NCBI GenBank assembly: GCA_023665245.1
Contig: JAMPEH010000002.1
Coordinates: 62,001-126,000 of the forward strand
Origin: Muribaculaceae bacterium
Lineage (GTDB): Bacteria; Pseudomonadota; Alphaproteobacteria; Rs-D84
Reading direction: 5' to 3'
DNA: 64,000 bases
The position numbers were made by a program, and so were the translations under genes. A model generated the notes under the pieces. That model was given only the letters and a program-made list of their open reading frames with translations, did not search any database and was not told the DNA's origin. Shown piece by piece: positions 4,561 to 63,058 of the stretch; within the stretch, counting starts at the first letter, position 1, and each line of letters starts with the position of its first letter.

Positions 4561-4780
4561 GACCAACGGGAATTGGTGTTCGGGGCTGTGATAAGCCTAT
4601 AACATATACAGTACATTGATTGGCCCGACGGTATGGCCAAGTTCTTTGTATTGAATATCCCCCGATATTTGTCGGGGAGCCATTTGCCATACAACAGGGC
4701 GTGCCTGAAAGCGGTGGAGTCATTTTTATATGTTATGATTTATCAACTCCCCGACCGTCAAATGCTGGCGGTCAAATTTT
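4561..4780 (+). promoter_or_regulatory. Pseudoknotted leader RNA, copy 1
   Basis: Candidate switch RNA. Parts in order: hairpin 1 (ACCAA...TTGGT, loop containing GGGA, 4562-4577); hairpin 2 GGC-TGTGATAA-GCC (4584-4597); A 4599-4608; a hairpin whose arms are b0 4660-4665 and B 4672-4677; A' 4727-4736 (10 bp perfect with A); B' 4747-4755 (9 bp perfect with B 4671-4679); then a terminator-like hairpin GACCG/CGGTC (4753-4773) and TTTTT. A and B pairings interleave, so they make a pseudoknot. AT-rich -10-like sequence lies about 10 bases before hairpin 1. The ribosome site of the next gene follows directly at 4791. I do not recognise it as a known riboswitch class. Confidence 0.7.
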
Positions 4781-4800
4781 TAATAACAAAGGGGAAACAA

Positions 4801-5163
4801 ATGGAAAATTCAGCAAGTGACGCATTAAAATCCGATTTGTATGGATTGGCTTATATATTATCTTTGGTGGTAATATTTATGGTTTGTTATGGGATGTATT
4901 TGTATGCAACGACCAGAATAGAACGTATTACGATTACCAAGATACGCTTTGGACAGGACAAGGGTTCTGCAAAGTATATGATTTATACGCGTGATGGTCA
5001 GGTTTTGACCAATGCAAATACTATATTTTTTATGAAATTCAAATCTGATGAATTGTTTATGAAATTAAAAGAAGGTGATACGTACGAGGTAAAAATCTGT
5101 GGTTTGCGTGTGCCTTTTTTGGGATGGTATAAAAACATTATATCCGCAAAAGAAGTAAAATAG
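4801..5163 (+). CDS. Small membrane-anchored protein, DUF1523-like
   Basis: A 120-residue protein with one N-terminal membrane segment (about residues 15-34, LAYILSLVVIFMVCYGMYLY) and a small beta domain outside. The pattern YMIYTRDGQ, then KFKSDEL, then YEVKICGLRVPFLGWYKNI resembles a family of short single-pass proteins annotated as DUF1523; this is a motif-level resemblance only. The ATG at 4801 has a good ribosome site (AAAGGGG, 4788-4794). The gene lies directly behind leader RNA copy 1, and the RNA plus gene is enclosed by direct repeats at 4508-4538 and 5228-5258. Function unknown. Confidence 0.65.
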   Translation: MENSASDALKSDLYGLAYILSLVVIFMVCYGMYLYATTRIERITITKIRFGQDKGSAKYMIYTRDGQVLTNANTIFFMKFKSDELFMKLKEGDTYEVKICGLRVPFLGWYKNIISAKEVK

Positions 5164-26403: not shown

Positions 26404-26473
26404 GTTTTGTCCGCATTTGTTGCGGATTTTTTTATTATATTTTGCATTAAATACCTGTATAATACATGACGGA

Positions 26474-26704
26474 ATTCACAGGGGACTGTGTATCCGGGGC
26501 TGTCGAAAGCCTGAATTAGCCGGTGTGGTTGTTGCTGTCGTTAAGACGATATATGCGATTCCTGCATCGTTATGTATCCCTGACCTTTATGTATAAGGGT
26601 CGGGGAGCTGTTGGTTATATAATAGGGCTTTTCCGAAAACCACAGAATCACTGCTAATTTGATTTTCGAACTCCCCGGCCATCAAATCATTGATGGCGTT
26701 TTTA
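26474..26704 (+). promoter_or_regulatory. Pseudoknotted leader RNA, copy 2
   Basis: A -10 TATAAT lies at 26458-26463. Hairpin 1 is CACAG-GGGA-CTGTG (26477-26490); hairpin 2 is GGC-TGTCGAAA-GCC (26498-26511); A is 26514-26520; b0 26577-26585 can pair with B 26599-26607; A' is 26653-26659; B' is 26671-26679; the terminator-like hairpin GCCATCA/TGATGGC (26678-26697) overlaps B' and runs into GTTTTTATT. Same plan as copies 1, 3, 4 and 5. The ribosome site of a lipoprotein gene follows. Confidence 0.75.
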
Positions 26705-26724: not shown

Positions 26725-27132
26725 ATGAAAAAAACTTTGATATGCCTTATGGGCGGTATTGCATTAACAGGATGTGCATCAATAGTCGATGGTTCAACAC
26801 AAAATATAAATATTGTTCCATCAAATTCAAAAGATAAAGTGAATGCGACGGTTATAACTGAAACAGGTGTACAGGTTATTAAATTGCCAGGTATGATTCA
26901 CACAAAGAAATCTGGTAAGGATATAACAATAAAAATTGATGAAGATGAAAATCCGTGTTATGAAACAAGTATGCAAATAGTATCTAGTTCGCTAAATCCA
27001 TTTATTCTGGGTAATGTTATTACTGGTGGAGTATTTGGTTCAACAACTGATGCTGCAACGGGTGCTGCGTGGAAATATGATGATACAGTCGTTGTGTATC
27101 CAACACGAAAAGATTCATGCAACGTTAAATAA
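26725..27132 (+). CDS. Small lipoprotein behind leader RNA copy 2
   Basis: A 135-residue lipoprotein: signal peptide ending ALTGC (lipobox), then ASIVDGSTQNI, the common start of a family of small lipoproteins. The end has FILGNVITGGVFGSTTDAATGAAW followed by a beta strand VVVYP, the Gly-rich hairpin typical of that family. The ATG at 26725 is preferred to 26719 because of spacing from AAAAGGGA. It is 10 bases before the DUF4105 gene, so the leader RNA would control both. Function unknown. Confidence 0.7.
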   Translation: MKKTLICLMGGIALTGCASIVDGSTQNINIVPSNSKDKVNATVITETGVQVIKLPGMIHTKKSGKDITIKIDEDENPCYETSMQIVSSSLNPFILGNVITGGVFGSTTDAATGAAWKYDDTVVVYPTRKDSCNVK

Positions 27133-27141
27133 TAGCAGGCT

Positions 27142-28671
27142 ATGAAAGGCTTTGTCATATCTGTATTAATTAGTGTGCTGTATATTAATACAGGTGTGGC
27201 AATGCCGTATGATTCTGATATTTGGAAAAATTTGTTGCACTATGACAAAGGGCGCAGTCTGATTAATTCAGATAGCTCTTTTTTCTTGTCAGGTAATGGA
27301 TATAAATTACCGGAATCAGAATATTTTGAAACTATAAATCAATTACAAAATTCAGATTTAATTGGTGATAATTCAATTCAGTGCCGGTATCCAGCACGTA
27401 CACGCTTTATTTTACAACATAATCCAGAACTAAAAATATCACACCAGAATTGTGATGGATATCAAGAATTTATTAACAAGGTGCCAATAGATAAAATAGA
27501 GGTTGCGTTTGCAGCTGAAAATACAATGAGCCCGATGTCAATGATGGGGCACACTTTTTTGATATTATCCGGAACGCATGATGGGCTAAATAGAAAGCAT
27601 GCGTTTGGTTATTCTGCATTTATAAATGATATCAATCCAGCGGGGCTGGTATTTAATGGATTGTTTTTTGGACTAGATGGTGTATACGGGTTGCTACCAT
27701 ATGATGACTATAAATCCAGATATTTATTACAAGAAAATCGTTCTATATGGAAATTTTGCTTGGATTTAACGTCAGAACAAATTGATAGACTAAAAGAACA
27801 TTTGTGGGAACTGAATCAACAACAGATAAAGTATACAATGTTGTTTCATAATTGTAATACTGCGACGGTTAGTTTATTAAAAATTATGAATGATGATTAT
27901 AGCGAAAAAACAATAAAACCTTTTTCGACGCCATTGGAATCAATTCAATATTTATATAATAAAGGATATTTATCAGATATTGCATTAGAACCAACAGATT
28001 CAACAAAGCAAGTAATATCAGAATATGGATTGAATAATATTTTGGATGTACCGCGTCCTATGCGTTTTTCATTGGGATATGAAAAATCAGGTTTATCTTT
28101 TGAATTTTCGCCGGTATATCAGGATATTCGTGATTCAACAGATGCATATTTTGATATGATGGAAAGTAAGATGGGTGCTATGTCTGGCCGAATTATTCAT
28201 GGACATGGTATCGTCTTAGATTCTGTTGAATTTATAAAAGCGCGTTCAATTGTTGATTATCGAATAAACAAGAAATTTTCAAAGTATATTAATATTGGCT
28301 TTGAAAACAGGCCTTTGTCACGTCGTTTCAGATTATATCCAAATGTACAATTCGGGGCTGGGCAGAGTATTCATATAAAACTGGTTCGATTATATTTTTT
28401 GCCAACAGTATCATATAAGTATACAAATAAAAGTAATGTGTATATAACGCCTGAAATCGGTGCAATTTCGCAAATGTCAAATAAAATTAGATTGCTGGTT
28501 TCATATAATTCAAATATAGATATAACAGGCAAATGGAATAAATATGACTTTGTACAGGCCAATATAAGTTATAATCCAACTGGTAGATATGATATTTTTA
28601 TAAATGCAAAATATTATCCAAATATGGGTGATGATTATCGGATATCCGGTGGTGTTGCATTGCATTTTTAA
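27142..28671 (+). CDS. DUF4105-like envelope protein with C-terminal barrel
   Basis: A 509-residue protein with a signal peptide (about residues 1-20). The front half has the DUF4105 pattern: CRYPARTRFI, then ENTMSPMSMMGHTFLIL with its conserved His, then LFHNCNTATVSLL, an NlpC/P60-like Cys-Asn element. The back half (from about 310) alternates like beta-barrel strands and ends VALHF. DUF4105 proteins are thought to be outer-membrane-linked hydrolases, unproven. Ten bases after the lipoprotein gene. Confidence 0.7.
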   Translation: MKGFVISVLISVLYINTGVAMPYDSDIWKNLLHYDKGRSLINSDSSFFLSGNGYKLPESEYFETINQLQNSDLIGDNSIQCRYPARTRFILQHNPELKISHQNCDGYQEFINKVPIDKIEVAFAAENTMSPMSMMGHTFLILSGTHDGLNRKHAFGYSAFINDINPAGLVFNGLFFGLDGVYGLLPYDDYKSRYLLQENRSIWKFCLDLTSEQIDRLKEHLWELNQQQIKYTMLFHNCNTATVSLLKIMNDDYSEKTIKPFSTPLESIQYLYNKGYLSDIALEPTDSTKQVISEYGLNNILDVPRPMRFSLGYEKSGLSFEFSPVYQDIRDSTDAYFDMMESKMGAMSGRIIHGHGIVLDSVEFIKARSIVDYRINKKFSKYINIGFENRPLSRRFRLYPNVQFGAGQSIHIKLVRLYFLPTVSYKYTNKSNVYITPEIGAISQMSNKIRLLVSYNSNIDITGKWNKYDFVQANISYNPTGRYDIFINAKYYPNMGDDYRISGGVALHF

Positions 28672-28674
28672 TCC

Positions 28675-28702
28675 TTGCACGGGGCGTTTTTTAGTTTATA
28701 AT
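28675..28702 (+). promoter_or_regulatory. Promoter of the aspS transcript
   Basis: TTGCAC (28675-28680), 16-base spacer, TATAAT (28697-28702); start expected near 28709. Confidence 0.75.
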
Positions 28703-28708
28703 ACCCAC

Positions 28709-28876
28709 ATGTTTAGGTGCGGTTTTGTGTTGATGTGACTGACAACCACGGAATAAAATACGTACAAGGTAAAGTTATAAATCAGGGTGGCACCGCGCAG
28801 AATATGCGCCCCTGAAATTAAAAAAATATGTTCGGGTGCCGCGATTTTTGTCGGCCCTGGAAACAAAAAAAGGGAC
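28709..28876 (+). promoter_or_regulatory. T-box-like leader of aspS
   Basis: AGGGTGGCACCGCG at 28784-28797 is an exact match to the T-box consensus AGGGUGGNACCGCG. It sits in a proper antiterminator: helix TCAGG/CCTGA (28782-28786 with 28811-28815), a bulge with TGGC, and helix GCGC/GCGC (28795-28798 with 28806-28809). TGGC would pair with a tRNA end GCCA, that is discriminator G, as in tRNA-Asp. An upstream hairpin (28717-28749) exposes GAT and GAC, both Asp codons. The 3' side GCGCCC..GAA can re-pair with TTCGGGTGC (28831-28839), and a later hairpin (GGCCCT/AGGGACC) would hide the ribosome site. Stem I is short. Confidence 0.75.
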
Positions 28877-31172: not shown

Positions 31173-31201
31173 TTGCAAACGCGAAAATAATCCGATATAA
31201 T
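31173..31201 (+). promoter_or_regulatory. Promoter of leader RNA copy 3
   Basis: TTGCAA (31173-31178), 17-base spacer, TATAAT (31196-31201). The RNA's first hairpin begins 8 bases later, so the 5' end of the RNA can be placed well. Confidence 0.8.
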
Positions 31202-31207
31202 GTGCAT

Positions 31208-31382
31208 GCACAGACGTGTTGTCTGTGTGGGAGTCAATATCCCGTAAAAGGCGTTTTGGGAAACAAAACGATAAATCTCCAACCAAATAGGTTGGAGGGT
31301 TGCGAATATATTGAATAAGCACACTATTCCTTTTAATAGTATTGACCTCCAACCGCTTGGATTTTTCCTGGTGGTTTTTTTG
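31208..31382 (+). promoter_or_regulatory. Pseudoknotted leader RNA, copy 3
   Basis: Hairpin 1 CACAGAC/GTCTGTG (31209-31227); hairpin 2 GGG/CCC (31229-31243); A 31245-31251; an extra hairpin CGTTTT/AAAACG (31252-31270); b0 31277-31284 pairs with B 31290-31297; A' 31329-31335 (7 bp with A); B' 31346-31354 (9 bp perfect with B 31290-31298); terminator-like hairpin AACCGC/GTGGTT (31351-31376) with a T-run. Between B and A' it shares GAATATA and GCACACTAT with copy 4. Followed by a short secreted protein gene. Confidence 0.75.
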
Positions 31383-31398: not shown

Positions 31399-31740
31399 TT
31401 GCGTGTTTTTGTTTTGATGTTTTTATTAATATCATTTAATGTCCATGCGGCACATAAAATGCCGGAACGTGAATATCAAAAAATTCTGTGTCCATATAAT
31501 GCCGAGGTACGCTTGCTGGACGGTACCCGTGTTGATTGTTTAACAGATATGTATGCGATAGAATTTGACTTTGCGTCTAAGTGGGCCGAGGCCTTGGGGC
31601 AATCATTACACTATGCGCGTATGACTGGGCGTAAACCTGCCATATTTTTAATAATCGAACGTGACAGTGATATGCGATATGTCGGGCGTTTGCGACCACT
31701 GTGTGAAAAATACGGCGTGTGGTTAACACTGGTTTATTAA
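31399..31740 (+). CDS. Secreted protein with PD-(D/E)XK-like motif
   Basis: About 113 residues from a TTG start at 31399 (GGGG ten bases before it); an earlier in-frame TTG at 31342 would lie inside the leader RNA. A signal peptide (FVLMFLLISFNVHAA) precedes KMPEREYQ. The core RVDCLTDMYAIEFDFASKW, then EALGQSLHYARMTGRKPAIFLII, has the Asp, Glu-x-Asp and Lys arrangement and the following helix and strand of small PD-(D/E)XK nuclease-like proteins. A nuclease-like fold exported from the cell is unusual. It ends overlapping the convergent AsmA gene by 4 bases. Confidence 0.6.
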   Translation: MRVFVLMFLLISFNVHAAHKMPEREYQKILCPYNAEVRLLDGTRVDCLTDMYAIEFDFASKWAEALGQSLHYARMTGRKPAIFLIIERDSDMRYVGRLRPLCEKYGVWLTLVY

Positions 31741-37430: not shown

Positions 37431-37560
37431 ATCGAACTCCTTTGGGTTAGAAGTATTTTTAGTATAGTACAAAATAATCAATCTGTCTATGCTTTTGTGG
37501 GGGCTGGAACGATGACGTTTTTTATTAATATTAGACATCGTTTTTGTTATAATAAGTACG

Positions 37561-37745
37561 TCACGATGATTTTTCGTGATGGGGTGTCGTAACCCGTTTT
37601 AGATGCGTCACATGATTGTGTGATGAAAATACTCCTGCCTGGTCAAAAGGGTGGGAGGGTGGTTGAATATACAAGAATATGCCACACTATCTCATCTAAA
37701 ATAGTTACGAACCTCCCACCACCGAATATATGGTGGTTTTGTTTT
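37561..37745 (+). promoter_or_regulatory. Pseudoknotted leader RNA, copy 4
   Basis: A -10 TATAAT lies at 37548-37553. Hairpin 1 TCACGA/TCGTGA (37561-37579); hairpin 2 GGG-TGTCGTAA-CCC (37582-37595); A TTTTAGATG 37597-37605; an extra hairpin TCACA/TGTGA (37608-37623); b0 37632-37639 pairs with B; B GGTGGGAGG 37650-37658; A' CATCTAAAA 37693-37701 (9 bp perfect); B' CCTCCCACC 37712-37720 (9 bp perfect); terminator hairpin ACCACC/GGTGGT (37718-37737) with TTTTGTTTT. The clearest example of the interleaved A-B-A'-B' pairing. Confidence 0.8.
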
Positions 37746-37764: not shown

Positions 37765-39378
37765 ATGCGAAAATTGTTTATATTGATGTTATTGTGTGTT
37801 GCACCAATTGCGTCATGGGCGGATTGTGGGGCGCGTTCCATTCAACTTTCAAAAGGTTGGTGGAATGACGATTTGTCTGATAATGATTTATTATTCACAT
37901 CGCAATCCACCCAGCAAGATTTAGCTATTAAATATGAAGAACAAAAAAGGAGAACTCCTGGTAAAGGGGCTATAACTATGGTTAGTTTCAGTACCACACG
38001 TGGCAGTGTGTATATGTGTGGTCACGGCTGTGACAGGGGAACATTGGTTCTGGCGCATTCCGGATGGCGTTTCAAAAATGCAGATATATCCGGTGATGTG
38101 TTATATAAATGCGATGGTGCAATTGATAAAGAATGGGTGGCATACAGTTTACCTGTATGTACTGCAACTAATTTGAAGTCGGCGAATATAAACAATGCCA
38201 CAAATCATGATATTTATGTAAATGGTAATGGTTTTTGCAAAATGTCACGCGAATTCTTGCAGAAAAAAGAAAAATGCTTACAGGCAAACGGTTCTAAAAA
38301 TTTAACAGATTCTTACAAGATTGGTGACGTTATGGCCTGGTGGGATGACAAGACTGGAATATGCGAGTGTCGTGAATTTTTAGTAAACGGTTTTTCTGGT
38401 AAACCATCGTGGCAAACCAGTATGAATTATACGTGGAATGGTACCGCCTGTGTCGGCAATGGGCAAAAAACACAACAAAGTGCACAATATGCGCAACAGA
38501 ATACAAATGCCTGCAAATTAAAAGATAATACGGTTTTATTAGTTGGCAAGGCAAAAAAGTTAAATGGGGCCGATTGTGTAAAATATGTTGATGATAAATA
38601 TATTATGGAAAAACAAAACGGCACTGCATTTGAAGTCGTATGCAGGTCAGGGGCGGTTGCCGTATGCAAGGCTACGGCATGTAAACAGAACTATACCGTA
38701 GATAATGGCACAGGCAAATGCATAAAAAATAAATCTGAACAAAAGACATCTGCCACAGGGACAAAGAAAAGCACAACATCAAATGTGAACGCAAAATCGA
38801 CAAATGAATCTGATAAAAACATAACCACAACAACAGAACCAGAAACAGCAACAGACGATGAACTAACGTCAGAAGAGCCAGAAGAAACAAAACAAGAAAT
38901 CGTACAATTTACGTGTGATAATGATGCACTGGTCCAGGTTGCAGTGTGGCGCAACACATATTCTGATGTGTCTGATATTGCAAGCCCAGCGGATGCGTTG
39001 GTACAATATTGCGGGCGTGATGATGCCGATGCGTCTGGGTTTAATATGCGATATAATAATTTATTGCAAATGGTTGAATTGCAGCAGCAATCGTTGCAAA
39101 CGGCGGATTCTTTAAGAAAAAATATTGCGCTGATGGCAGATAATTTAAATTCATTTAATTTTGAAAAAAGCCATTGGAAAACCGCCAGCGGTAATTTTAA
39201 CGGGGCGCGCCTTGCATCTGATTCAATCGCGGGTGTTGTGTTGGGAACCATTGGTGGTGTTGTCACCAGTAATGTCATAAAAAAGAATCAGACCAAACAT
39301 GGGTTTGAAGACATTAGATGTGTAATCGGCGGCCAGACAGTTGCGGATTATGCGGATGATTTTGTCGTTGGCCAATAA
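37765..39378 (+). CDS. Large Cys-rich secreted protein
   Basis: A 537-residue protein with a signal peptide (MRKLFILMLLCVAPIASWA). The N-terminal 320 residues hold about twenty cysteines in spaced pairs (MCGHGCDRG, GICECREF, CKATACKQNY), then a low-complexity Ser/Thr/Glu linker (about 325-385), then a helical part ending in DSIAGVVLGTIGGVVTSNVIKK, a Gly-rich hydrophobic hairpin that may enter a membrane. The order suggests a surface adhesin or matrix protein. Behind leader RNA copy 4, with ribosome site AAGGGAAAA. No known family. Confidence 0.6.
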   Translation: MRKLFILMLLCVAPIASWADCGARSIQLSKGWWNDDLSDNDLLFTSQSTQQDLAIKYEEQKRRTPGKGAITMVSFSTTRGSVYMCGHGCDRGTLVLAHSGWRFKNADISGDVLYKCDGAIDKEWVAYSLPVCTATNLKSANINNATNHDIYVNGNGFCKMSREFLQKKEKCLQANGSKNLTDSYKIGDVMAWWDDKTGICECREFLVNGFSGKPSWQTSMNYTWNGTACVGNGQKTQQSAQYAQQNTNACKLKDNTVLLVGKAKKLNGADCVKYVDDKYIMEKQNGTAFEVVCRSGAVAVCKATACKQNYTVDNGTGKCIKNKSEQKTSATGTKKSTTSNVNAKSTNESDKNITTTTEPETATDDELTSEEPEETKQEIVQFTCDNDALVQVAVWRNTYSDVSDIASPADALVQYCGRDDADASGFNMRYNNLLQMVELQQQSLQTADSLRKNIALMADNLNSFNFEKSHWKTASGNFNGARLASDSIAGVVLGTIGGVVTSNVIKKNQTKHGFEDIRCVIGGQTVADYADDFVVGQ

Positions 39379-39917: not shown

Positions 39918-40475
39918 ATGCAAGCGAAAACATTAAAACAAATTTCGAGTATTAAATCTGGATACGCCTTTCGTGGGGCGATTGTGGGTAATGCTGTTTC
40001 TGGGGTGCGTGTAATTCAGCCGCGGGATATTATAACGAATAACATATTGGATTTGGTAATAAGAAAAACAGAGAATTGTTTTTGTGGGTGTTTGTTGAAT
40101 CCGGGGGATGTTTTAATTACAAATCGTGGCACAATACGGGCGATGGTATTTCGTGAGAAGTTTAAGGCAATAGCAACAAGTGCTGTTTTTATTTTGCGTG
40201 TTTCGGATGTTGTATTGCCTGAATATTTGGCGGTGTATATCAATTCAGAAATGGGTCAGCATCAGATAAAAATGCGCCAAGAATTGTCCACGGTTGCGGC
40301 CCTGACGGTACGGCAGGTTGCGGAACTTGTGGTTCCGATTCCGGCGATGGATGTGCAAGAAAAATTGGTGCGTTTATATGAATTACAACAGCGTCAAAAA
40401 AATTTACAAAATGAATTAATTGTTTTAAGAGATAAAATTTTTAACAATACACTCAAGGGGGTATTAAATGGCTAA
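39918..40475 (+). CDS. Single-domain (half) type I specificity subunit
   Basis: A 185-residue protein with one target-recognition domain (about residues 5-150) and one helical dimerisation stretch at the end (QEKLVRLYELQQRQKNLQNELI), instead of the two of each in a full HsdS. Half-size S subunits can dimerise to rebuild a specificity unit. It overlaps hsdM by 8 bases. A complete hsdS lies downstream at 43815, so the locus has two candidates to guide one methylase. ATG 39918 has a poor ribosome site. Confidence 0.7.
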   Translation: MQAKTLKQISSIKSGYAFRGAIVGNAVSGVRVIQPRDIITNNILDLVIRKTENCFCGCLLNPGDVLITNRGTIRAMVFREKFKAIATSAVFILRVSDVVLPEYLAVYINSEMGQHQIKMRQELSTVAALTVRQVAELVVPIPAMDVQEKLVRLYELQQRQKNLQNELIVLRDKIFNNTLKGVLNG

Positions 40476-41973
40476 AGTTACGCAGGATGAGTTGAATAAA
40501 TTACTGTGGTCGGCGGCGGATTCGGCACGTGGCACGGTTGATGGCGGGGTTTTTAAAGATTATGTATTATCGCTGTTGTTTTATAAGTATATGAGCGATA
40601 TGCATGTTGCTGAACGTAAAAAATTGATTGCGCGTTATGGTGGTGATGTGATTCGTGTTAAAATGCGGTTAAAGAATGCGCGTTTTGTAATGCCAGATGA
40701 TGCCAGTTTTTACGATGTTTATGCACAACAGTCTGCGGATAATATTGGCGAAATATTAAATGTTGCGTTACAAAAAATAGAAGATGCCAACGAAGAAAAA
40801 TTACGTGATATTTTCACGGTTGATTTTAATTCACAGGCTATTTTGGGTCCAACGGTCCAGCGTAACAAGATGATACGCGATTTGTTAAATGACTTTAATC
40901 GTGTTGATTTAAGTGATGTTGATGATGATATTTTGGGCAATGCATATATGTATATGATTGAACGCTTTGGTACAGATGCGGGCAAAAAGGCCGGGGAATT
41001 TTATTCGCCGCGCAGTTTATGTAAATTGGTGGCGCGTTTGGCGGCACCGTCCGATGGAAATCGCATTTGTGATCCTGCGTGCGGTTCGGGTGGATTGTTG
41101 TTGCTTGCCGGGGCCGAGGTTGAAAAAACAGGTTCTAAAAATTATGCATTATACGGTCAGGAAAAAACCGGGGCAACGTATAACCTGGCACGAATGAATA
41201 TGTTTCTGCATGGAATGGATTCGGCACGTATTGAATGGGGTGATACATTAAATAACCCACTGTTGCGTGATGGAAATGGACTGATGAAATTTGATGTCGT
41301 TGTGGCGAATCCACCGTTTTCGTTGGATAAGTGGGGTGACAAATCACTGGAAAATGATAAATATAATCGTTTTTGGCGCGGTATGCCGCCGGCCAGCAAG
41401 GGCGATTATGCATTTATTTCCCATATGATTGAAACGGCAAAGGTAAAAGAGGGGCGTGTGGCGGTAATTGTCCCGCATGGTGTTCTGTTCCGTGGCGCGG
41501 CCGAGGGGCGAATTCGTCGTGCATTGATAGAAGAAAATTTGCTTGATGCGGTTATTGGTCTGCCGGCGGGGCTGTTCCAAACCACGGGGATCCCAGTGGC
41601 AATATTGATATTTGACCGCACGCGAGAGGTGGGTGGCAAAAACGAAAATCGCAAGGATGTTTTGTTTATTGATGCCAGTCGCGAATTTGTATCGGAAAAG
41701 AAGCAAAACCAGTTGTCCGATGAAAATATTGAAAAAATTGTGAACACATATCGTAATCGTGCAGAGGTTGAAAAATATTCACACATAGCATCGCCACAGG
41801 AAATTGCGGATAATGATTTCAACCTGAATATTCCACGCTATGTTGATACGTTTGAAGAAGAGAAAACGGTGGACATCCCAGCGACCTGTGCGCGTATTGC
41901 AGAGATAGAGGCCGAACTTGCCAAAACCACCGCCGAGATGGATAAGTATTTGAAAGAATTAGGAATAAAATAA
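40468..41973 (+). CDS. hsdM: Type I restriction-modification methylase HsdM
   Basis: A 501-residue N6-adenine methyltransferase: an N-terminal helical domain, SAM-binding ICDPACGSGGLLL (near residue 200) and catalytic NPPF (near 280), then a helical end with a coiled stretch. With HsdS it methylates the target, with HsdR it cuts unmethylated DNA. The order here is half-hsdS, hsdM, rhuM, HEPN gene, hsdS, HEPN-like gene, hsdR, ygjP-like, all on one strand with small gaps or overlaps. Confidence 0.95.
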   Translation: MAKVTQDELNKLLWSAADSARGTVDGGVFKDYVLSLLFYKYMSDMHVAERKKLIARYGGDVIRVKMRLKNARFVMPDDASFYDVYAQQSADNIGEILNVALQKIEDANEEKLRDIFTVDFNSQAILGPTVQRNKMIRDLLNDFNRVDLSDVDDDILGNAYMYMIERFGTDAGKKAGEFYSPRSLCKLVARLAAPSDGNRICDPACGSGGLLLLAGAEVEKTGSKNYALYGQEKTGATYNLARMNMFLHGMDSARIEWGDTLNNPLLRDGNGLMKFDVVVANPPFSLDKWGDKSLENDKYNRFWRGMPPASKGDYAFISHMIETAKVKEGRVAVIVPHGVLFRGAAEGRIRRALIEENLLDAVIGLPAGLFQTTGIPVAILIFDRTREVGGKNENRKDVLFIDASREFVSEKKQNQLSDENIEKIVNTYRNRAEVEKYSHIASPQEIADNDFNLNIPRYVDTFEEEKTVDIPATCARIAEIEAELAKTTAEMDKYLKELGIK

Positions 41974-41986
41974 AAGGGAAAGTGCA

Positions 41987-43000
41987 ATGACAAGAACGGC
42001 GGATAATCAACTGGTTATGTTTAATGCCCCTGATGGAGGAATTGCATTAGAGGTTCTGTTTGCAGATAATAATGTATGGTTGTCGCAAAAAAAGATATCT
42101 GAATTATATGATACAACACCCCAAAATATCATTATGCATTTAAAGAACATTTATGCCGCTAATGAATTGGATGAAGGGGCAACTTGTAAGGAATCCTTAC
42201 AAGTTCAAAATGAAGGCAACAGGCAAGTTAGTCGTCATATAAAATTATACTCGTTAGAAGCTATATTGGCCGTTGGGTATCGTGTAAATTCACCACGTGG
42301 TATTCAATTCAGGCAATGGGCAACGGAAATCTTGCATAATTATGTATATAAGGGTTTTGCTATTGATTCTGATCGCTTTAAATATGGTTCAAAATTCAGT
42401 ACTCGTTTTTTTGATGAGTTATTGGAAGAAATTCGTGATATTCGTGCATCAGAACGAATGGCGTATCAAAAAATTACCGATATTTATGCGACCAGTATTG
42501 ATTACTTCAAAGATGCTGAAATAACCAAAATGTTCTTTGCTACGGTTCAAAATAAACTGCATTTTGCAATTACTGGTCATACCGCTGCAGAAATTATAGT
42601 GAAACGTGCCAACAGTAAACAACCAAATATGGGATTGACAACGTGGAAGCGTGCGCCAAAGGGAAAAATTATGCTGTCTGATGCGGTTGTTGCAAAAAAT
42701 TATTTGAAACAAGACGAAATATCCCATTTGAATCGTATCGTTTCAATGTATATAGACTATGCGGAATTACAGGCGGCGCGTCATATTCCGATGAAAATGG
42801 CAGATTGGGCAGATAAATTAAATGCCTTTTTGCAGTTTAACGAATATGATATTTTGAACAATGCTGGCAAGGTAAGTCATGCAGTTGCAGAAAAACTGGC
42901 AACCCAAGAATACGAAAAATTCAGACCGATTCAAGATGCCAAGTATATCTCTGATTTTGATCGTGAAGTAGAAAAATTGGAAAAGAATTTAATGAAATAA
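41987..43000 (+). CDS. RhuM-family protein
   Basis: A 337-residue protein with the RhuM pattern: VWLSQKKISELYDTTPQNIIMHLKNIY at the front (a helix-turn-helix), then the SVQNEGNRQVSRHIKLYSLEAILAVGYRVNSPRGIQFRQWAT region, split here as QVSRHIKLYSLE and GYRVNSPRGIQFRQW. RhuM proteins are very often found in type I restriction loci and mobile islands; their role is not known. Ribosome site AAAAGGGAAAG. Confidence 0.85.
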   Translation: MTRTADNQLVMFNAPDGGIALEVLFADNNVWLSQKKISELYDTTPQNIIMHLKNIYAANELDEGATCKESLQVQNEGNRQVSRHIKLYSLEAILAVGYRVNSPRGIQFRQWATEILHNYVYKGFAIDSDRFKYGSKFSTRFFDELLEEIRDIRASERMAYQKITDIYATSIDYFKDAEITKMFFATVQNKLHFAITGHTAAEIIVKRANSKQPNMGLTTWKRAPKGKIMLSDAVVAKNYLKQDEISHLNRIVSMYIDYAELQAARHIPMKMADWADKLNAFLQFNEYDILNNAGKVSHAVAEKLATQEYEKFRPIQDAKYISDFDREVEKLEKNLMK

Positions 43001-43022
43001 TTAATGTTGTAAAGGAGCAGAA

Positions 43023-43796
43023 ATGGATTATAAAGAAATTAAAGACGAGTTGCACGCATTGTTGCATGATTTTGCAGATGTCAAACATGCATACGTTTAT
43101 CAGCATATGTCTGCCTTTGTAATAGATGATGATAATAAAAATGCATTGAGGAAATTAAAAAATGTTAATATACCTCATCGGTATCATTCTGTGTATACAC
43201 GAGCATTGAAAGCTGTAAAAGTATTCATTCCTGACAGGTATCAAGATTTTATTTATCTTTATGCTAATCCAAACCGCAAGAAAGATTTCTCTTTAGACTC
43301 ATACGATATATCTTTAGGGTTAACAGGGATAACAAAAACAATACAGGAGGAAGCATATATTAGACAAATGTATACATTATTAGATTTACAAGAAGGAATA
43401 TTGAGGAGTATTCTTCCTACATTAGATTCTAAACTTTTTGATATTCAAGGTGAAATACAGTATGAATTATTTATGCGAGAACTTGATGCTGCCGAACATT
43501 TGTTAAAAAATAAGTTTGTACGAGCGGCTGGTGCTATGGCGGGTGTTGCTCTGGAGGCTCATTTAAAAAGTGTGTGTCTAAATAGAAATATCAAAATAAC
43601 TAAACGTGACGATTTGTCAAAATATAATGATTACCTAAAGTCAGAAAGTATTATAGACCAACCAAAATGGCGCAAAATTCAATATTTAACAGATATTCGG
43701 AATGCATGCGATCATAAGCGAGATGCGGAACCAACAAAAGAGCAAGTTGCAGAATTGATAAATGGAACGAAGCAAATAATTTCAGAAGTGTTATGA
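43023..43796 (+). CDS. HEPN-domain protein in the type I island
   Basis: A 257-residue protein. The C-terminal half (about residues 150-257) is helical with AAGAMAGVALEAHLKSVC and, near residue 228, RNACDHKRD, which gives the R-x4-H signature of HEPN ribonucleases. The N-terminal half is unlike known families. HEPN proteins in restriction islands commonly serve as abortive-infection RNases; here this is inference from the motif and place. Ribosome site AAAGGAG. Confidence 0.6.
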   Translation: MDYKEIKDELHALLHDFADVKHAYVYQHMSAFVIDDDNKNALRKLKNVNIPHRYHSVYTRALKAVKVFIPDRYQDFIYLYANPNRKKDFSLDSYDISLGLTGITKTIQEEAYIRQMYTLLDLQEGILRSILPTLDSKLFDIQGEIQYELFMRELDAAEHLLKNKFVRAAGAMAGVALEAHLKSVCLNRNIKITKRDDLSKYNDYLKSESIIDQPKWRKIQYLTDIRNACDHKRDAEPTKEQVAELINGTKQIISEVL

Positions 43797-43814
43797 TGGC
43801 GAAGGGATCTCGGA

Positions 43815-45020
43815 ATGCAAAGAGTTAATATTCCAAAGGGTTGGGAAAGTAAAAAATTGAGCACTATAGGCCAGATTGTATCTGGTGGAACACCCGACAC
43901 GGATAATATAGAGTATTGGAATGGTGATGTCGCATGGCTAACCCCATCTGAAGTGTCTGGTTGTGATACAAAATATTTGTCTGATACAGTGCGCTATATA
44001 ACAGATAGTGGGCTACAAAAAAGCTCTGCCATACTGTTACCAGAAAAAACTCTAATTATTTGTACGCGTGCCACAATTGGCGATTGTTGTATAAATAGTG
44101 TGCCAATGTGCACAAACCAGGGATTTAAATCTATAATATCATCAGACGCATCTGTTGAATTTTTATATTATGTTGTAAAACATAATAAGAACGCTTTTAT
44201 ACGAAAAGCTTGTGGGAGTACATTTTTAGAAATTTCAAAAAAAGATGTAGAAAATTTGACTTTTGCAATCCCGCCATTGTCCGAGCAGGAAAAGATTGCG
44301 GAGATTTTAAGTTGTTGGGATGATGCGATTGAGCAGTTACAGAATCTGATCGCAGAAAAGAAAGAATTAAAACGTGGTCTGATGCAACAACTGCTAACTG
44401 GCAAAAAGCGACTGCCTAGCTTTTCTAAACCGTGGGACAAAATAAAGCTATGTGTTATTTTACGTGAAATATCAGAAAAAACAATCGTTAATAACCAGCA
44501 CAAAGTATTATCTGTTACAAAAAACGGCGTCTGTTCACAAGAAGATTATTTTGATAAACAAATCGCAAGTGAAAATAATATAGGCTATAAAATTTTACAC
44601 AAACACAATTTAGTGTTTAGTCCTATGAATTTATGGATGGGCTCTTTGGGCTTTTCAGATTATGACATAGGAATAGTTAGCCCAGCATATAAAATTTTTA
44701 CAATAAACGAGGATATCGCAGATTACAGATTTTTAAAATATCTTATGATTACATCAAATATGATTTATCTGTACAGGGTAAATTCAGAAATAGGTGCAAG
44801 TATTGTTAGGAGAAACTTAGATTTAGAAGGCTTGTTGTCTTCTTGGGTGTTTTTTCCATGTTTAGAAGAACAACATGCAATTGCGGACATGCTTATGTCG
44901 GCGGATGCGGAAATCGACCTGCTGAATAAAAAATTAGATGTTTTGACAGAGCAGAAAAAGGGGCTGATGCAAAAATTGCTGACCGGTGAAATCAGGGTAA
45001 AGGTTGATGCACATGAATAG
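43815..45020 (+). CDS. hsdS: Type I specificity subunit HsdS
   Basis: A 401-residue protein with two target-recognition domains (about residues 5-150 and 205-350), each followed by a helical spacer with LSEQEKIAEILSCWDDAIEQLQNLIAEKKELKRGLMQQLLTG, here split as SEQEKIAEILSCWDDAI and KELKRGLMQQLLTG, and the second with KKGLMQKLLTGEIR. It decides the bipartite DNA target of the methylase and nuclease. Its stop overlaps the next gene. Confidence 0.92.
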   Translation: MQRVNIPKGWESKKLSTIGQIVSGGTPDTDNIEYWNGDVAWLTPSEVSGCDTKYLSDTVRYITDSGLQKSSAILLPEKTLIICTRATIGDCCINSVPMCTNQGFKSIISSDASVEFLYYVVKHNKNAFIRKACGSTFLEISKKDVENLTFAIPPLSEQEKIAEILSCWDDAIEQLQNLIAEKKELKRGLMQQLLTGKKRLPSFSKPWDKIKLCVILREISEKTIVNNQHKVLSVTKNGVCSQEDYFDKQIASENNIGYKILHKHNLVFSPMNLWMGSLGFSDYDIGIVSPAYKIFTINEDIADYRFLKYLMITSNMIYLYRVNSEIGASIVRRNLDLEGLLSSWVFFPCLEEQHAIADMLMSADAEIDLLNKKLDVLTEQKKGLMQKLLTGEIRVKVDAHE

Positions 45021-45633
45021 GGATTTTCAGATTTTTGAACAGATTAAAAATATTTTACAAGAGAATAACAAAGAAATTCGTGCGGGCACATCGTGGTTAA
45101 CGACTGTATATCGTGGGTTATGTAATCATCTATATTATTATATGGATGCCTATAAACTGTTATTTGAAAATGATAATTATTATGTGTGTAAAACGATAGA
45201 ACGTGCAATATTGGATTTGTATGTTAAAACACGTTGCTTAGTAATCGCTGAAAATATTGAAATGTTGGCTCAGGAACTGGTTAAAACTGGAAAAATTGAT
45301 AAACAGTATTTAAAACCTGATGTTATAAAAAATTGTAGTACTACATATTTATGTGAATATTTTGACGAACAAGATGGTAATGTTTTTTCAGAAGATGTGA
45401 ATACTGGTCAGAAAAGTGGTGTGTTAACAACCAAATACAGGGATGCGTGCAAATTTGTACATCCAGCATTTCCGTGTATTTGGTCTTATACAACAGATTC
45501 AAGGAACAATTGGCAAACTATTATACAAAATGATAGGGATGAGTTTATAGGGCTTGTTTTAAAGGAAAATTCATTATTGTCCATATTAAGTGGCAAGATT
45601 ATAGAAAATCAGAGAGGGGTTTCTGATGAGTAA
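45013..45633 (+). CDS. HEPN-like / DUF5677-like protein between hsdS and hsdR
   Basis: About 206 residues, helical. The motif YRDACKFVHPAFP near residue 140 fits R-x6-H, so it too may be a HEPN-fold protein; the general look (helical bundle, late Y-x-x-x-C-x-x-x-H) recalls DUF5677. ATG 45013 is preferred to 45007 for spacing from AAAGG. It overlaps hsdS by 8 bases and hsdR by 8, so it is translationally coupled to both. Confidence 0.6.
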   Translation: MNRDFQIFEQIKNILQENNKEIRAGTSWLTTVYRGLCNHLYYYMDAYKLLFENDNYYVCKTIERAILDLYVKTRCLVIAENIEMLAQELVKTGKIDKQYLKPDVIKNCSTTYLCEYFDEQDGNVFSEDVNTGQKSGVLTTKYRDACKFVHPAFPCIWSYTTDSRNNWQTIIQNDRDEFIGLVLKENSLLSILSGKIIENQRGVSDE

Positions 45634-48600
45634 TTGTGATAATCCATACTATTTACCAGATTTTGATGAGGCGTCTAGCAGTCAAATTCCTGCGATTATT
45701 CAGTTGATAAATATGGGCTATACCTATATCGGGCGGCGCGATGTTGATAAAATGCGTGAATCGCATGGGCAATATATCCTGCGTGATATTGCATTTAATG
45801 CGTTGCGTGCAATCAATGATGCAGCAAAAATTTCTGATAATAGTATCCGGGAAGCCATATTGGATTTAGAAAAAATCAAGATGGATGACGGTATTATAAA
45901 AGCGTCTGAGATAGTGTTTTCTAACCTGTTGGCAGGTGTTGCGGTATCTGAATTTATAGATGGAAAAAAAGTATCACCCCAGTTGCGTTTTATTGATTGG
46001 GAAAATCCAGAAAATAATCAATTTCATGTCGTTCCAGAATTTGAGATATCTGAGGAACAAAATCGCCGCCCTGATATTGTTTTATTTGTTAATGGTATTC
46101 CGTTTGCGGTTATTGAGAATAAAAAGGCGTCAGTCCCGGTTGATGCGGCGATTGATCAAATGATACGCAATCAATCTGGTAATCAAACACCACGTTTCTT
46201 TATTTATCCGCAAATCCTTATTGGGACAAATGTCAATGAATTAAAATATGGAACTATGTTGACACCGCGGAAATTTTATTCTGTATGGAAAGAAAAAGAT
46301 AAAAACAATAACTTTGATGCAAATGTTCTAAATAGTGTAAATAAGCCAATAGATTACAATATATTAAAACAAATATCACATGACTTGTTGCGTGGTGATT
46401 ATGTGCAAGGGCAGAAACAAGTGCCAACATCCCAGGATTATGGTATTTATAGTTTGTTGGAACCGGTGCGAATGTTGGATATTGTTCGTAATTTTGTGAT
46501 TTATGATAATGGTGTAAAGAAATTGCCACGGTATCAGCAATATTTTGCCATTAAAAAGACGTTAGAACGTATTCAAAATAAAGATAAAAATGGAAAGCGT
46601 CAGGGTGGACTTATATGGCATACCCAGGGTTCGGGTAAATCTTTGACGATGGTTATGCTGACCAAGAATCTGATAGAGCATATTCAAAATCCGCGTATTA
46701 TTGTTGTGACAGACAGAACAGATTTAGATCGTCAAATACGGGATACTTTCCAGGCTTGTAATATAAAGGTTGGTGTGCAACAGGCCACATCATGCAAAGA
46801 TTTAATAAAACGTATAAAGTCAAAAACGACGGATGTGATTACCACGTTGATACAAAAATTTGAAGCAGACAGGTATAAAGATACGGATAATAATATTTTT
46901 GTCCTGATTGATGAGGCGCACCGAACACAAGGCGGTGAAGATAATGGTAATATGAACTTAATTTTGCCAAATGCATGTCAAATTGCGTTTACGGGTACGC
47001 CATTGATGACAAAAAAGAAACGTCAGACCGAAGAAAAATTTGGTGGAATCATAGATTCTTATACTATATCAGAAGCTGAAGCTGATGGTGCAATTTTGCC
47101 ATTGGTATATCAGGGACGGTTTGTAGAACAAAGTGTTAGTCCTATAGTAGACAAGTTCTATGAACGTGTTTCCGGTAGTATGACAGAGCAAGAACGTAAA
47201 GATTTTGAGAAAAAATGTGTTTCAAAGGCTGTTTTAGAAGAAACGTCACAACGTATTGATATGATTGCAGTAGACGTTCATGAGCATTATACAAAGTTTT
47301 TCCAAGGGACTGGATTAAAAGGTCAATTGGTGGCCCCGTCCAAATATTCCGCAGTATTGTTTAAAAATGCATTTGATTTGTTGGGGGGGGTACAGTCAGC
47401 GGTTGTTATTTCTGATACGAAAAGTGGTGAAGAGGACAAGGATAAAATGCCAGAACAAAAGGCGGTTGTTGAACGCTATTTACAGGAGCAAAAGCGACTG
47501 TATGGTTCTTTGGAATCGCGCGAGAAACAAATAATCCAGGATTTTAAGAAAAATCCGGACGGTATTGAGTTGTTGATAGTTGTTGATAAGTTGTTAACCG
47601 GATTCGATGCGCCGCGTGATACTGTGTTATATTTGGCAAAGCAGTTAAAAGATCATAACCTATTGCAGGCAATTGCCCGGGTCAATCGCCTGTTTGATGG
47701 GGATGATAGCAAGCCTGCAAAGGCAAATGGTTTGATTGTTGATTATTCAAAAAATGCAAAAAATTTGAAAACTGCGTTAGAATTATTTTCTAACTATGAC
47801 CCCGATGATGTACATAGGGCATTGTTAGATACGTCCGAACAAATTTATATTTTGGAAACCTTGTATCAAAAATTACATGCTGCATTCACTGATATAAAAG
47901 ATGCAACAAATACAGATGCATATGTTCAAAAATTATTAGATCCAAAGAATGAAGAGATAAAAAAAGAATTCTATGAAAATGTAAATAATTTTATACGTAC
48001 ATTTTCATCTTGTTCCTGTTTATATGATTTCTATGAAAAATTTGATGAAGAAAAATTGAAACGTTATAAACTCGATCTAAAACGTTTTGTTGAAATAAAA
48101 AAGATATCACAATTGGTTGCCGGTGAACGTGTTGATTTCTCGAAATATAAAGATCAATTGAAAAAATTGTTGGATAAGTATGTGACAGCAACAGATGTTG
48201 AAATTTTATCCCAAGAGATAAGTTTAACAAACATGCGTGAGTTTAATCAGTTTGTAGAGGATGAACAAAATGGTTTGTCAAAACGTTCGCAGGCAAAGGC
48301 CATTGCAGCACAAACAAGTCGGGTTATAAGCGAACGTTATAAACAGGACGAGGTTTTTTATAAGAATTTTTCTGACAGGATAAAAAAATTGCTGGAAGAA
48401 TTAAGAACTGCAAAACAAGAAGATATTGCATCGTTGTTTGAACAGGCAAAGACTTTGCAGTCCCAAGTGGATAATTATGAAGATTCTGATATTCCGTCTG
48501 TATTACTGGCGCAAAAAAGTACGCATGCATTTTTTAGAAATACTTGGGATGCCGTCATAGAAACAGGAATAAACAGGGATGATTATGCAGATGCAATAAT

Positions 48601-61988: not shown

Positions 61989-62798
61989 TTATTCAATATT
62001 GTATTTAAACTGACCGGTGCCAGAATTATAAAAGAATTTGTTTGAAACCGTGTCATAGAATGTGGGTGTATCGGCAGCGTCAAGGACGGGTATCAGGTTC
62101 ATAATCAGTGTGTCGTTTCGCCAAAAACGGGCATAATATACGCGTCCCATAAATTTTCGTGAATCTGTTTTTGAATTAAATGTGACCGCCCCCAGGGATA
62201 AATTGTTTGTTGTTGGTGTTTCGGACAGTGTCGGTATATTTTCTATTGTTTTGTCGTTTACAGTGAGGGTGTCATTGTACCAGCGTATTGTTTGTGGCGT
62301 ATCATCTACGATTATTTCTGTGTATGTATGGTTGCCGAATGCGGTCAAAATATGTGGCGCACCATCACAATAGTTTGTTGCATTTGTGTACCATACCAGG
62401 TATTGTCCGTTTTTTATCAGGCCCGTAAGGCCACTGCGTGCGCCCAGCAGACAGCCGTCATGATTTGGGACTGTATTATCCATCCAGGCTTTTATTTCGA
62501 ATTGCAGTTCGGCAGATGGTGGAAATCCCAAATCAATATGTTGTGAGCCATCAAAATATAAATAGTCCAGAACTGTTATTCCGATGTTATATTTTGTTTC
62601 GTTATATATGGTGCAAAGTTTACAGGTTGAATTCTGCGACATCGGTGTGTAAACAATTTTATCGCCGATGGCGGCTGCTAAACTAGGGGTGGTGGTTTTG
62701 TGTGGTGTTAACAGGATTTTCTTGTCGCCAATATGTAAAAATGCGCCATGTGCTGAAATGGTGTATATATATAATATAAATATTATAAATTTTTTCAT
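61989..62798 (-). CDS. Secreted LamG/concanavalin-like protein
   Basis: A 269-residue protein from the ATG at 62798 with a signal peptide (KFIIFILYIYTISAHGA). From about residue 85 it has the LamG-type beta-sandwich pattern seen in gut phage and surface proteins: FDGSQHIDLGF, then LLGARSG, then FMGRVYYARFWRNDTLIMNLIPVLD and FYDTVSNKFFYNSGTGQF. Such domains bind sugars or proteins. An in-frame start at 62870 would lie inside leader RNA copy 5, so it is rejected. Confidence 0.7.
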   Translation of the reverse strand: MKKFIIFILYIYTISAHGAFLHIGDKKILLTPHKTTTPSLAAAIGDKIVYTPMSQNSTCKLCTIYNETKYNIGITVLDYLYFDGSQHIDLGFPPSAELQFEIKAWMDNTVPNHDGCLLGARSGLTGLIKNGQYLVWYTNATNYCDGAPHILTAFGNHTYTEIIVDDTPQTIRWYNDTLTVNDKTIENIPTLSETPTTNNLSLGAVTFNSKTDSRKFMGRVYYARFWRNDTLIMNLIPVLDAADTPTFYDTVSNKFFYNSGTGQFKYNIE

Positions 62799-62821
62799 GT
62801 TTTGTACTGTTTTTTCCTGTG

Positions 62822-63058
62822 AAAAAAAAACCGTCACATGGAAATGACGGTCGGGTATTTTCAAGGTCATAATCTGAATGACTCTGTGGTTTTTAATTAT
62901 GTTAAAATTTATTGTATAGCCACAGATACCCGACCCAAAATGTTAGGTCAGGAAAAAACAGTGCGAACACATCGGTGTACGCTGTGGATGACGATGCCAT
63001 TCGCACCGCAGATTATGGGTCTTGAAAACCCCGAACCCCAAATCCCTTTGTGGTTCAT
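62822..63058 (-). promoter_or_regulatory. Pseudoknotted leader RNA, copy 5 (minus strand)
   Basis: Read on the - strand: hairpin 1 with loop GGGA (63056-63035), hairpin 2 GGGGTTTTCAAGACCC (63032-63017), A ATAATCTG (63016-63009), b0 62952-62946, B GGTCGGGTAT (62935-62926), A' CAGATTAT (62876-62869, 8 bp perfect), B' ATACCCGACC (62858-62849, 10 bp perfect), terminator hairpin CCGTCA/TGACGG (62850-62831) and nine T. A -10-like TATACA lies about 10 bases before hairpin 1. Leads into the LamG-like gene. Confidence 0.8.

What the first reader, a model, noticed from the sequence alone, without database searches (positions are those of the whole stretch)
37561..37745. A family of five pseudoknotted leader RNAs in front of envelope and secreted-protein genes
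Seen in sequence: copies at 4561-4780, 26474-26704, 31208-31382 and 37561-37745 on + and 63058-62822 on - share one plan: hairpin 1, hairpin 2 (loop near TGTCGAAA), strand A, b0:B hairpin, A', B', terminator-like hairpin with T-run, ribosome site. A:A' is 7-10 bp and B:B' is 9-10 bp in every copy, with different bases each time, which is covariation. The pairings interleave, so they form a pseudoknot. A -10-like box lies about 10-15 bases before hairpin 1 in all copies. Every downstream gene encodes an exported, lipid-anchored or membrane protein. I know no riboswitch class with this plan.
Basis: partly seen in the sequence, partly recalled or inferred. Interest (0 to 1): 0.95.

Follow-up and report, generated by a model that had tools for sequence, protein, structure and literature searches.

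The report
c4-like RNA switches before surface genes
The five leaders are real members of a large family of knotted RNA switches, found in dozens of copies per genome in some gut alphaproteobacteria and built like the antisense RNAs that phages use to control their own genes.

Summary
The five copies are real. Covariance models and 143 resolved relatives show A:A', B:B', b0:B and a terminator with strong covariation. So C-A upstream meets a bipartite antisense strand, A'-C'.

One model rings in 55 of 59 genomes of a gut alphaproteobacterial order, dozens of times in some. Downstream genes are enriched for secreted proteins, but small HTH proteins and glycosyltransferases also occur.

It is not wholly unknown. 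A sister copy passes Rfam's cut-off for sRNA-Xcc1 (RF02221); the window's copies do not. Most sRNA-Xcc1 and phage c4 loci tested share the order C-A, then A'-C' in the RNA, plus a second C-A copy at the downstream Shine-Dalgarno. The gut family largely lacks that second copy; it has b0 and a terminator whose 5' arm overlaps B'.

Best reading: a c4/sRNA-Xcc1-type antisense core rebuilt as a cis transcription attenuator. Near-identical paralogues in one genome carry different, compensated address strands, hinting at copy-specific recognition, but address sharing overall is not rarer within genomes than between them. Signal, direction and any trans action are inferred.

The parts
37548..37553 (+). 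-10-like box TATAAT of the focal copy
   Evidence: sequence; family statistics
37561..37579 (+). hairpin H1 (TCACGA...TCGTGA)
   Evidence: sequence
37582..37595 (+). hairpin H2 (GGG-TGTCGTAA-CCC)
   Evidence: sequence
37587..37593 (+). strand C (TCGTAAC) in the H2 loop, pairs with C'
   Evidence: covariation
37596..37605 (+). strand A (GTTTTAGATG)
37632..37639 (+). strand b0, alternative partner of B
37650..37658 (+). strand B (GGTGGGAGG)
37659..37685 (+). hairpin H4 (GTGG...CCAC) with the conserved AUAYAA/GAA-type loop
   Evidence: sequence
37693..37702 (+). strand A' (CATCTAAAAT)
37704..37710 (+). strand C' (GTTACGA), the A'-B' linker
37712..37720 (+). strand B' (CCTCCCACC)
37718..37745 (+). 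terminator: stem 37718-37737 (ACCACC/GGTGGT) and T-rich run; 5' arm overlaps B' by 3 nt
   Evidence: sequence
37765..39378 (+). downstream gene, 537 aa, signal-peptide-like N-terminus, no Pfam match
4563..4785 (+). copy 1 (type I); C 4589-4595, A 4598-4608, b0 4660-4666, B 4671-4679, A' 4727-4737, C' 4739-4745, B' 4747-4755
4801..5163 (+). gene after copy 1, 120 aa, membrane stretch by eye
   Evidence: no Pfam
26484..26704 (+). copy 2 (type I); -10 26458-26463, C 26503-26509, A 26512-26520, b0 26577-26585, B 26598-26607, A' 26653-26661, C' 26663-26669, B' 26671-26680
26725..27132 (+). gene after copy 2, 135 aa, lipoprotein-like N-terminus
   Evidence: no Pfam
31212..31382 (+). copy 3 (type II); -10 31196-31201, C 31233-31240, A 31245-31251, b0 31276-31284, B 31290-31298, A' 31329-31335, C' 31339-31346, B' 31346-31354
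31399..31740 (+). gene after copy 3, 113 aa (start inferred), signal-peptide-like
   Evidence: no Pfam
62818..63058 (-). copy 5 (type I); C 63021-63028, A 63009-63017, b0 62946-62952, B 62926-62935, A' 62868-62876, C' 62858-62865, B' 62849-62858
61989..62798 (-). gene after copy 5, 269 aa from the ATG near 62798, signal-peptide-like
   Evidence: no Pfam

Best explanation
Each copy is a cis-acting 5' leader built on the core of a c4/sRNA-Xcc1-type antisense RNA. Strand A'-C' is a bipartite antisense to the upstream segment C-A (C in the H2 loop, A just after H2). Strand B, made after b0, pairs either with b0 (hairpin) or with B'. B' ends inside the 5' arm of the terminator. State 1: b0:B forms, B' is free, the terminator forms, the gene is off. 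State 2: A:A', C:C' and B:B' form a triple pseudoknot, B' is taken, the base of the terminator stem is broken, transcription reads through. In sRNA-Xcc1 and c4 loci the same A'-C' strand instead has a second target over the Shine-Dalgarno; the gut lineage has largely lost that target and gained b0 plus the terminator. Shown by sequence: all strands, their covariation, the overlap, the position before genes. Inferred: that the two states occur, which is on, and what shifts the balance (a protein, small molecule or RNA acting at H4, H2/C or A).
For: 143 resolved copies: C:C' score >=13 in 132 of 143 against 13.9% of mismatched copies; A:A' (best anywhere upstream) >=18 in 85 of 143 against 4.3%. 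Bipartite C-A with A'-C' >=28 in 124 of 143 against 2.5%. Column counts. Terminator-like stem in 139 of 143; its 5' arm overlaps the extended B:B' helix by 3-6 nt in 112 of 139; T-rich tail (>=6 T of 12) in 124 of 139, but in 0 of 21 sRNA-Xcc1 loci with a hairpin there. b0:B >=16 in 116 of 143 gut copies, 6 of 143 shuffled, 2 of 28 sRNA-Xcc1 loci. All five elements together in 116 of 143. Window energies: b0:B -12.3 to -20.1, B:B' -16.9 to -21.4 kcal/mol, B:B' the stronger in all five. In G032, 36 of 40 matches are followed after 11-28 nt by an ORF start on the same strand and 37 of 40 chosen starts have a loose SD motif. sRNA-Xcc1 homology. c4 layout.
Against: No transcript, probing or reporter data. 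The descriptor, ORF choice and resolution of copies were made by me after seeing the pattern; B:B' is a selection criterion, and 24 of 167 model matches were lost before the counts (12 duplicates, 12 near contig ends or unresolved). The overlap with the terminator is short, so both might coexist. b0 was a weak part of the criterion that placed B. A small excess of A'-C' complementarity to the gene side remains in gut copies (>=24: 28 of 143 against 8.5%; >=28: 6 of 143 against 0.9%), so a few copies may also have a Shine-Dalgarno target. 27 of 143 copies lack at least one element at the thresholds used.
Confidence: 0.6

Rival explanations
1. Copy-specific antisense feedback: the terminated leader is itself an RNA whose A'-C' strand invades C-A of newly made transcripts of the same leader, stops their pseudoknot from forming and so favours termination (compare antisense-driven attenuation of plasmid pT181, recalled). 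A and C are private addresses.
For: The architecture is that of trans-acting antisense RNAs. In G032, 36 copies carry 35 distinct A' strands. Two pairs of near-identical paralogues in one genome (L196/L199, 99% protein identity, G032; L096/L101, 98%, G002) have different, still complementary A/A', while three pairs of relatives in different genomes (L089/L162, L146/L164, L003/L028) keep the same A.
Against: A' 7-mers are shared by 7 of 1007 within-genome pairs and 23 of 9146 between-genome pairs, and A'C' 9-mers by 61 of 1007 and 300 of 9146: sharing is not rarer within genomes. Among the 21 protein pairs over 60% identity, A is shared in 0 of 8 within-genome and 3 of 13 between-genome pairs, too few to decide. 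L196 has a broken B' and may be decaying. One pair in G032 (L152/L154) has the same address.
Confidence: 0.15
2. A ligand-binding riboswitch of an undescribed class: H2, H4 and the linker form a pocket for a metabolite or second messenger and the pseudoknot is the bound state.
For: Conserved H4 internal loop (AUAYAA...GAA) and short conserved linker in both subtypes; terminator coupling.
Against: H2 loop and linker turn out to be a helix with changing bases rather than a fixed pocket; dozens of copies before unrelated genes; kinship to antisense RNAs.
Confidence: 0.12
3. Stand-alone small RNA genes (as sRNA-Xcc1 was described) that merely sit upstream of genes and act on other mRNAs.
For: Own promoter-like box and terminator; tandem triplets at L093, L147, L086 and L106; RF02221 is filed as an sRNA.
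Against: 36 of 40 matches in G032 lie 11-28 nt before an ORF start on the same strand, which free sRNA genes need not do; b0 and the terminator overlap are attenuator features.
Confidence: 0.1
4. A DNA element (integron attC-like or transposon end) rather than RNA.
For: RF02221 was described from integron cassettes (passages of PMC12444791; title of Chen 2011 in reference lists).
Against: Promoter-like box, terminator, SD spacing and RNA-type G-U and compensatory changes; copies scattered singly; no attC test was run.
Confidence: 0.03

Closest known systems
sRNA-Xcc1 (Rfam RF02221)
   Same: B, H4 with AUACAA...GAA loop, linker, B' align directly to a sister copy at 55.5 bits. The flanks of RF02221 loci hold H2 with C, A upstream, and A'-C' inside the Rfam model: bipartite C-A with A'-C' >=28 in 25 of 28 loci against 15.5% mismatched.
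   Different: RF02221 loci have a second C-A copy at the Shine-Dalgarno (>=28 in 19 of 28 against 6.1%), present A' in a small hairpin, have a terminator-like hairpin between A and B (by eye), rarely b0 (2 of 28) and no T-run after B' (0 of 21). Rfam models only the B-to-B' fragment. Downstream genes are Bro-N (5 of 24), Rha (3), SymE (2), P22_AR and KilA-N (1 each).
c4 antisense RNA (Rfam RF01695) and the c4-a1b1 motif
   Same: Same order: hairpin with C loop, A, hairpin with T-run, RNA with A'-C', then C-A at the Shine-Dalgarno (13 loci printed; 26 loci scored: upstream >=30 in 23 of 26 against 5.9%, downstream >=28 in 21 of 26 against 10.2%). Also upstream of its target gene on the same strand.
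   Different: Different helix sequences and an A'-presenting hairpin; no Rfam match of any gut copy to RF01695; no terminator coupling. That a' and b' bind at the target's ribosome site, and the names a1b1/a2b2, are recalled (Citron and Schuster 1990, not read); PMC2864571's table row for c4-a1b1 was seen.
trp-type transcription attenuators
   Same: Alternating strands b0-B-B'-terminator arm, where 1:2 plus 3:4 competes with 2:3.
   Different: No leader peptide was found by eye; the middle strand belongs to a pseudoknot.

Membership tests
sRNA-Xcc1 RF02221 | Rfam covariance model score at or above the gathering score of 53 bits | tested here: not met
   Best window copy 32.3 bits, absent from the window-wide list. 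Met by one sister copy, L084, 55.5 bits, and in 2 of 59 genomes of the order; 37 of 59 have E <= 0.01.
sRNA-Xcc1 RF02221 | B-H4-A'-C'-B' core with AUACAA loop | tested here: met
   Alignment; family alignments.
sRNA-Xcc1 RF02221 (architecture found here) | Second C-A copy over the Shine-Dalgarno of the next gene | tested here: not met
   Gut copies: mean 20.4 own against 19.7 mismatched; small excess at >=24 (28 of 143 against 8.5%).
c4 antisense RF01695 | Rfam match | tested here: not met
   No RF01695 hit for the window or for 18 family loci; G003 has none.
c4 antisense RF01695 | Upstream bipartite segment complementary to a strand of the RNA | tested here: met
   124 of 143 gut copies against 2.5%; c4 itself 23 of 26 against 5.9%.
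c4 antisense RF01695 | Acts in trans as a processed RNA | not testable with these tools
   No expression data.
metabolite riboswitch | Ligand binding | not testable with these tools
   Needs probing.
transcription attenuator | Terminator exclusive with an upstream pairing | tested here: met
   Overlap of 3-6 nt in 112 of 139 copies, T-rich tail in 124 of 139; function itself untested.

The most novel reading that the evidence does not exclude
Each genome carries dozens of parallel self-sensing RNA circuits: every terminated leader is an antisense RNA for its own nascent transcript only, with hypervariable C/A addresses, so each surface or secreted-protein gene has a private feedback dial derived from a phage immunity RNA.
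Probability: 0.15. Interest if true: 0.95.

Novelty: new variant of a known kind. Interest (0 to 1): 0.8.

Why it matters
It joins two Rfam families (sRNA-Xcc1 and c4) and a new gut family in one architecture, suggests that sRNA-Xcc1 as modelled is a fragment of a larger leader whose antisense strand can cover a Shine-Dalgarno, and shows a phage-type RNA logic spread to dozens of chromosomal genes, many for secreted proteins, in small uncultured gut genomes. If the addresses are private, it would be a natural set of orthogonal RNA regulators.

Tried and rejected
Metabolite riboswitch, attC-like DNA element and free sRNA were weighed and ranked low. A leader peptide in H1-H2 was looked for by eye in the focal copy (a short ATG frame ending in the H2 loop) and not followed because other copies lack it by eye. 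A first combined alignment of both subtypes (A4) misaligned H4 and was dropped for two models. A first relative search with an AsmA-like protein found nothing. The claim that addresses are under selection to be unique in a genome was tested and not borne out on the whole set; it rests on two paralogue pairs. The first -10 count had an edge effect and was replaced.

Counts lost: of 167 model matches, 155 were unique and 143 resolved. Of 30 RF02221 loci fetched, L239 (a gut copy) was set aside, L236 failed, 28 were scored; of their 28 ORFs, 24 went to Pfam (L221, L223, L225, L232 left out as doubtful). Of 30 RF01695 loci, 26 were scored (L252, L253, L258, L264 left out, contig ends). Searches over 40 genomes use stricter filters and capped candidates, so counts are lower bounds; whether the 14 positive genomes beyond G003, G011 and G015 belong to other orders is not told, only suggested by their larger size.

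Papers: passages only of PMC2996969, PMC12444791, PMC12189769, PMC2864571, PMC11701678, PMC8201110, PMC8546580; reference-list passages of PMC8876359 and PMC6557892; the rest listings. That this link is not in print rests, in an open-licence library only.

Full report
Observation. My descriptor finds the five and one chance place; four Markov windows give 1, 0, 0, 1. The same descriptor on 80 loci around aspS relatives (1.42 Mb) gave 79 hits, of which I judged 16 to be true copies by eye. From these 21 sequences I built two models: R1 for copies like 31208 and 37561 (type II, 11 sequences) and R2 for copies like 4561, 26474 and 63058 (type I, 10 sequences).

Host. The window's AspS is 96% identical to that of a MAG titled uncultured Rickettsiales bacterium and 85-87% to Candidatus Enterousia MAGs; NCBI places Candidatus Enterousia in Alphaproteobacteria incertae sedis. 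No whole genome is held for the window.

Spread. R1 rings at E <= 0.001 in 55 of 59 genomes of the order of G003, and in 17 of 289 genomes drawn from the class at E <= 1e-4, three of which were also in the order sample. In six relatives' genomes R1 gives 8 to 68 and R2 4 to 49 matches at E <= 0.01; the two overlap in part. In the 980 kb taken of the 1.0 Mb contig of G032 there are 40 merged matches, a few of them weak. The type II core pattern is in only 2 IMG/VR stretches.

Structure. 143 copies were resolved out of 167 matches. Besides A:A' and B:B', the H2 loop pairs with the linker: in the window TGATAAG/TTTATCA, TCGAAAG/TTTTCGA, GTCAATAT/GTATTGAC, TCGTAAC/GTTACGA and TTTTCAAG/CTTGAAAA. 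C:C' scores >=13 in 132 of 143 copies against 13.9% of mismatched pairs. In alignment A11 (61 distinct rows) all 7 C:C' pairs and in A12 (49 distinct) 6 of 7 show changes on both sides, with 89% and 95% of cells paired, although neither model held C:C'. Because C precedes A and C' follows A', the two form one bipartite antisense.

Alternative states. B follows b0, and b0:B and B:B' exclude each other. B' runs into the terminator's 5' arm: overlap 3-6 nt in 112 of 139 copies. In all five window copies B:B' is computed as more stable than b0:B. I infer an attenuator with b0:B plus terminator against the triple pseudoknot.

Genes. In G032, 36 of 40 matches have an ORF start 11-28 nt downstream on the same strand. 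By a crude rule 22 of 38 such proteins are signal-peptide-like against 183 of 794 predicted genes (Fisher p 7.5e-6; my gene finder misses odd genes, so the background is rough); over the resolved set it is 73 of 122. Others are HTH proteins (4 of the 10 proteins, two of these below Pfam's cut-off), glycosyltransferases, LicD and Stealth proteins. A small Cys-containing secreted family (MKKHLIIAGIIC...) recurs in G032 and has no Pfam match in the member tested.

Kinship. Rfam gives no match over cut-off in the window except tRNAs. The focal copy scores 32.3 bits with sRNA-Xcc1; sister copy L084 scores 55.5, over the cut-off of 53. The flanks of its loci show H2 with C, A, and a second C-A at the Shine-Dalgarno. 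c4 loci show the same. In Xanthomonas integrons sRNA-Xcc1 lies upstream of symE and its authors note a divergent regulatory mechanism (PMC12444791, passage); Xylella has five clustered copies (PMC12189769, passage). I therefore read the three as one architecture: in c4 and sRNA-Xcc1 the antisense strand has a target at the ribosome site; in the gut lineage that target is mostly gone and a terminator switch stands in its place. Common descent of c4 with the other two is inferred from layout, not from sequence.

Addresses. Paralogues L196 and L199 in G032 are 99% identical in protein; in their alignment promoter, H1, terminator and gene are nearly identical while H2 loop, A, A' and linker differ and still pair. 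L196, however, has a damaged B'. Over all copies, address sharing is not rarer within than between genomes. Private recognition is thus a lead, not a finding.

Limits. Everything is computed from sequence; MAGs are incomplete; thresholds were chosen after inspection; mismatched-copy controls keep composition but not phylogeny.

Noticed in passing
window 28562-28816 (+), motif at 28784-28797: T-box-like leader before aspS with the motif AGGGTGGCACCGCG; Rfam T-box score 26.5, far below the cut-off of 93. GGGTGGCACCGCG is present upstream of aspS in 21 of 21 related loci checked (19 by the pattern, L060 and L063 read from the printed sequence). T-boxes in Alphaproteobacteria would be unusual (recalled).
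   Followed up: partly
L093:1501-2073, L147:1019-1655, L086:1301-1864, L106:1501-2127: Tandem triplets of the leader; by eye in L093 each copy has its own -10-like box and only the last is next to a gene.
   Followed up: partly
L164:549-971 and relatives in G032: A small secreted Cys-containing protein family recurs in many copies behind these leaders; no Pfam match in the member tested.
   Followed up: no
RF02221 and RF01695 loci between A and B: Both groups share a hairpin followed by a T-run ending in GTGCC between A and B, which looks like a conserved early terminator.
   Followed up: no
window 40468-48793: Type I restriction-like locus: N6_Mtase and HsdM_N match at 40468-41973; neighbours not searched.
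   Followed up: no
L220:2890-2958 (-): A c4-2 (RF02944) match of 34.8 bits, below its cut-off of 41, near an RF02221 locus.
   Followed up: no
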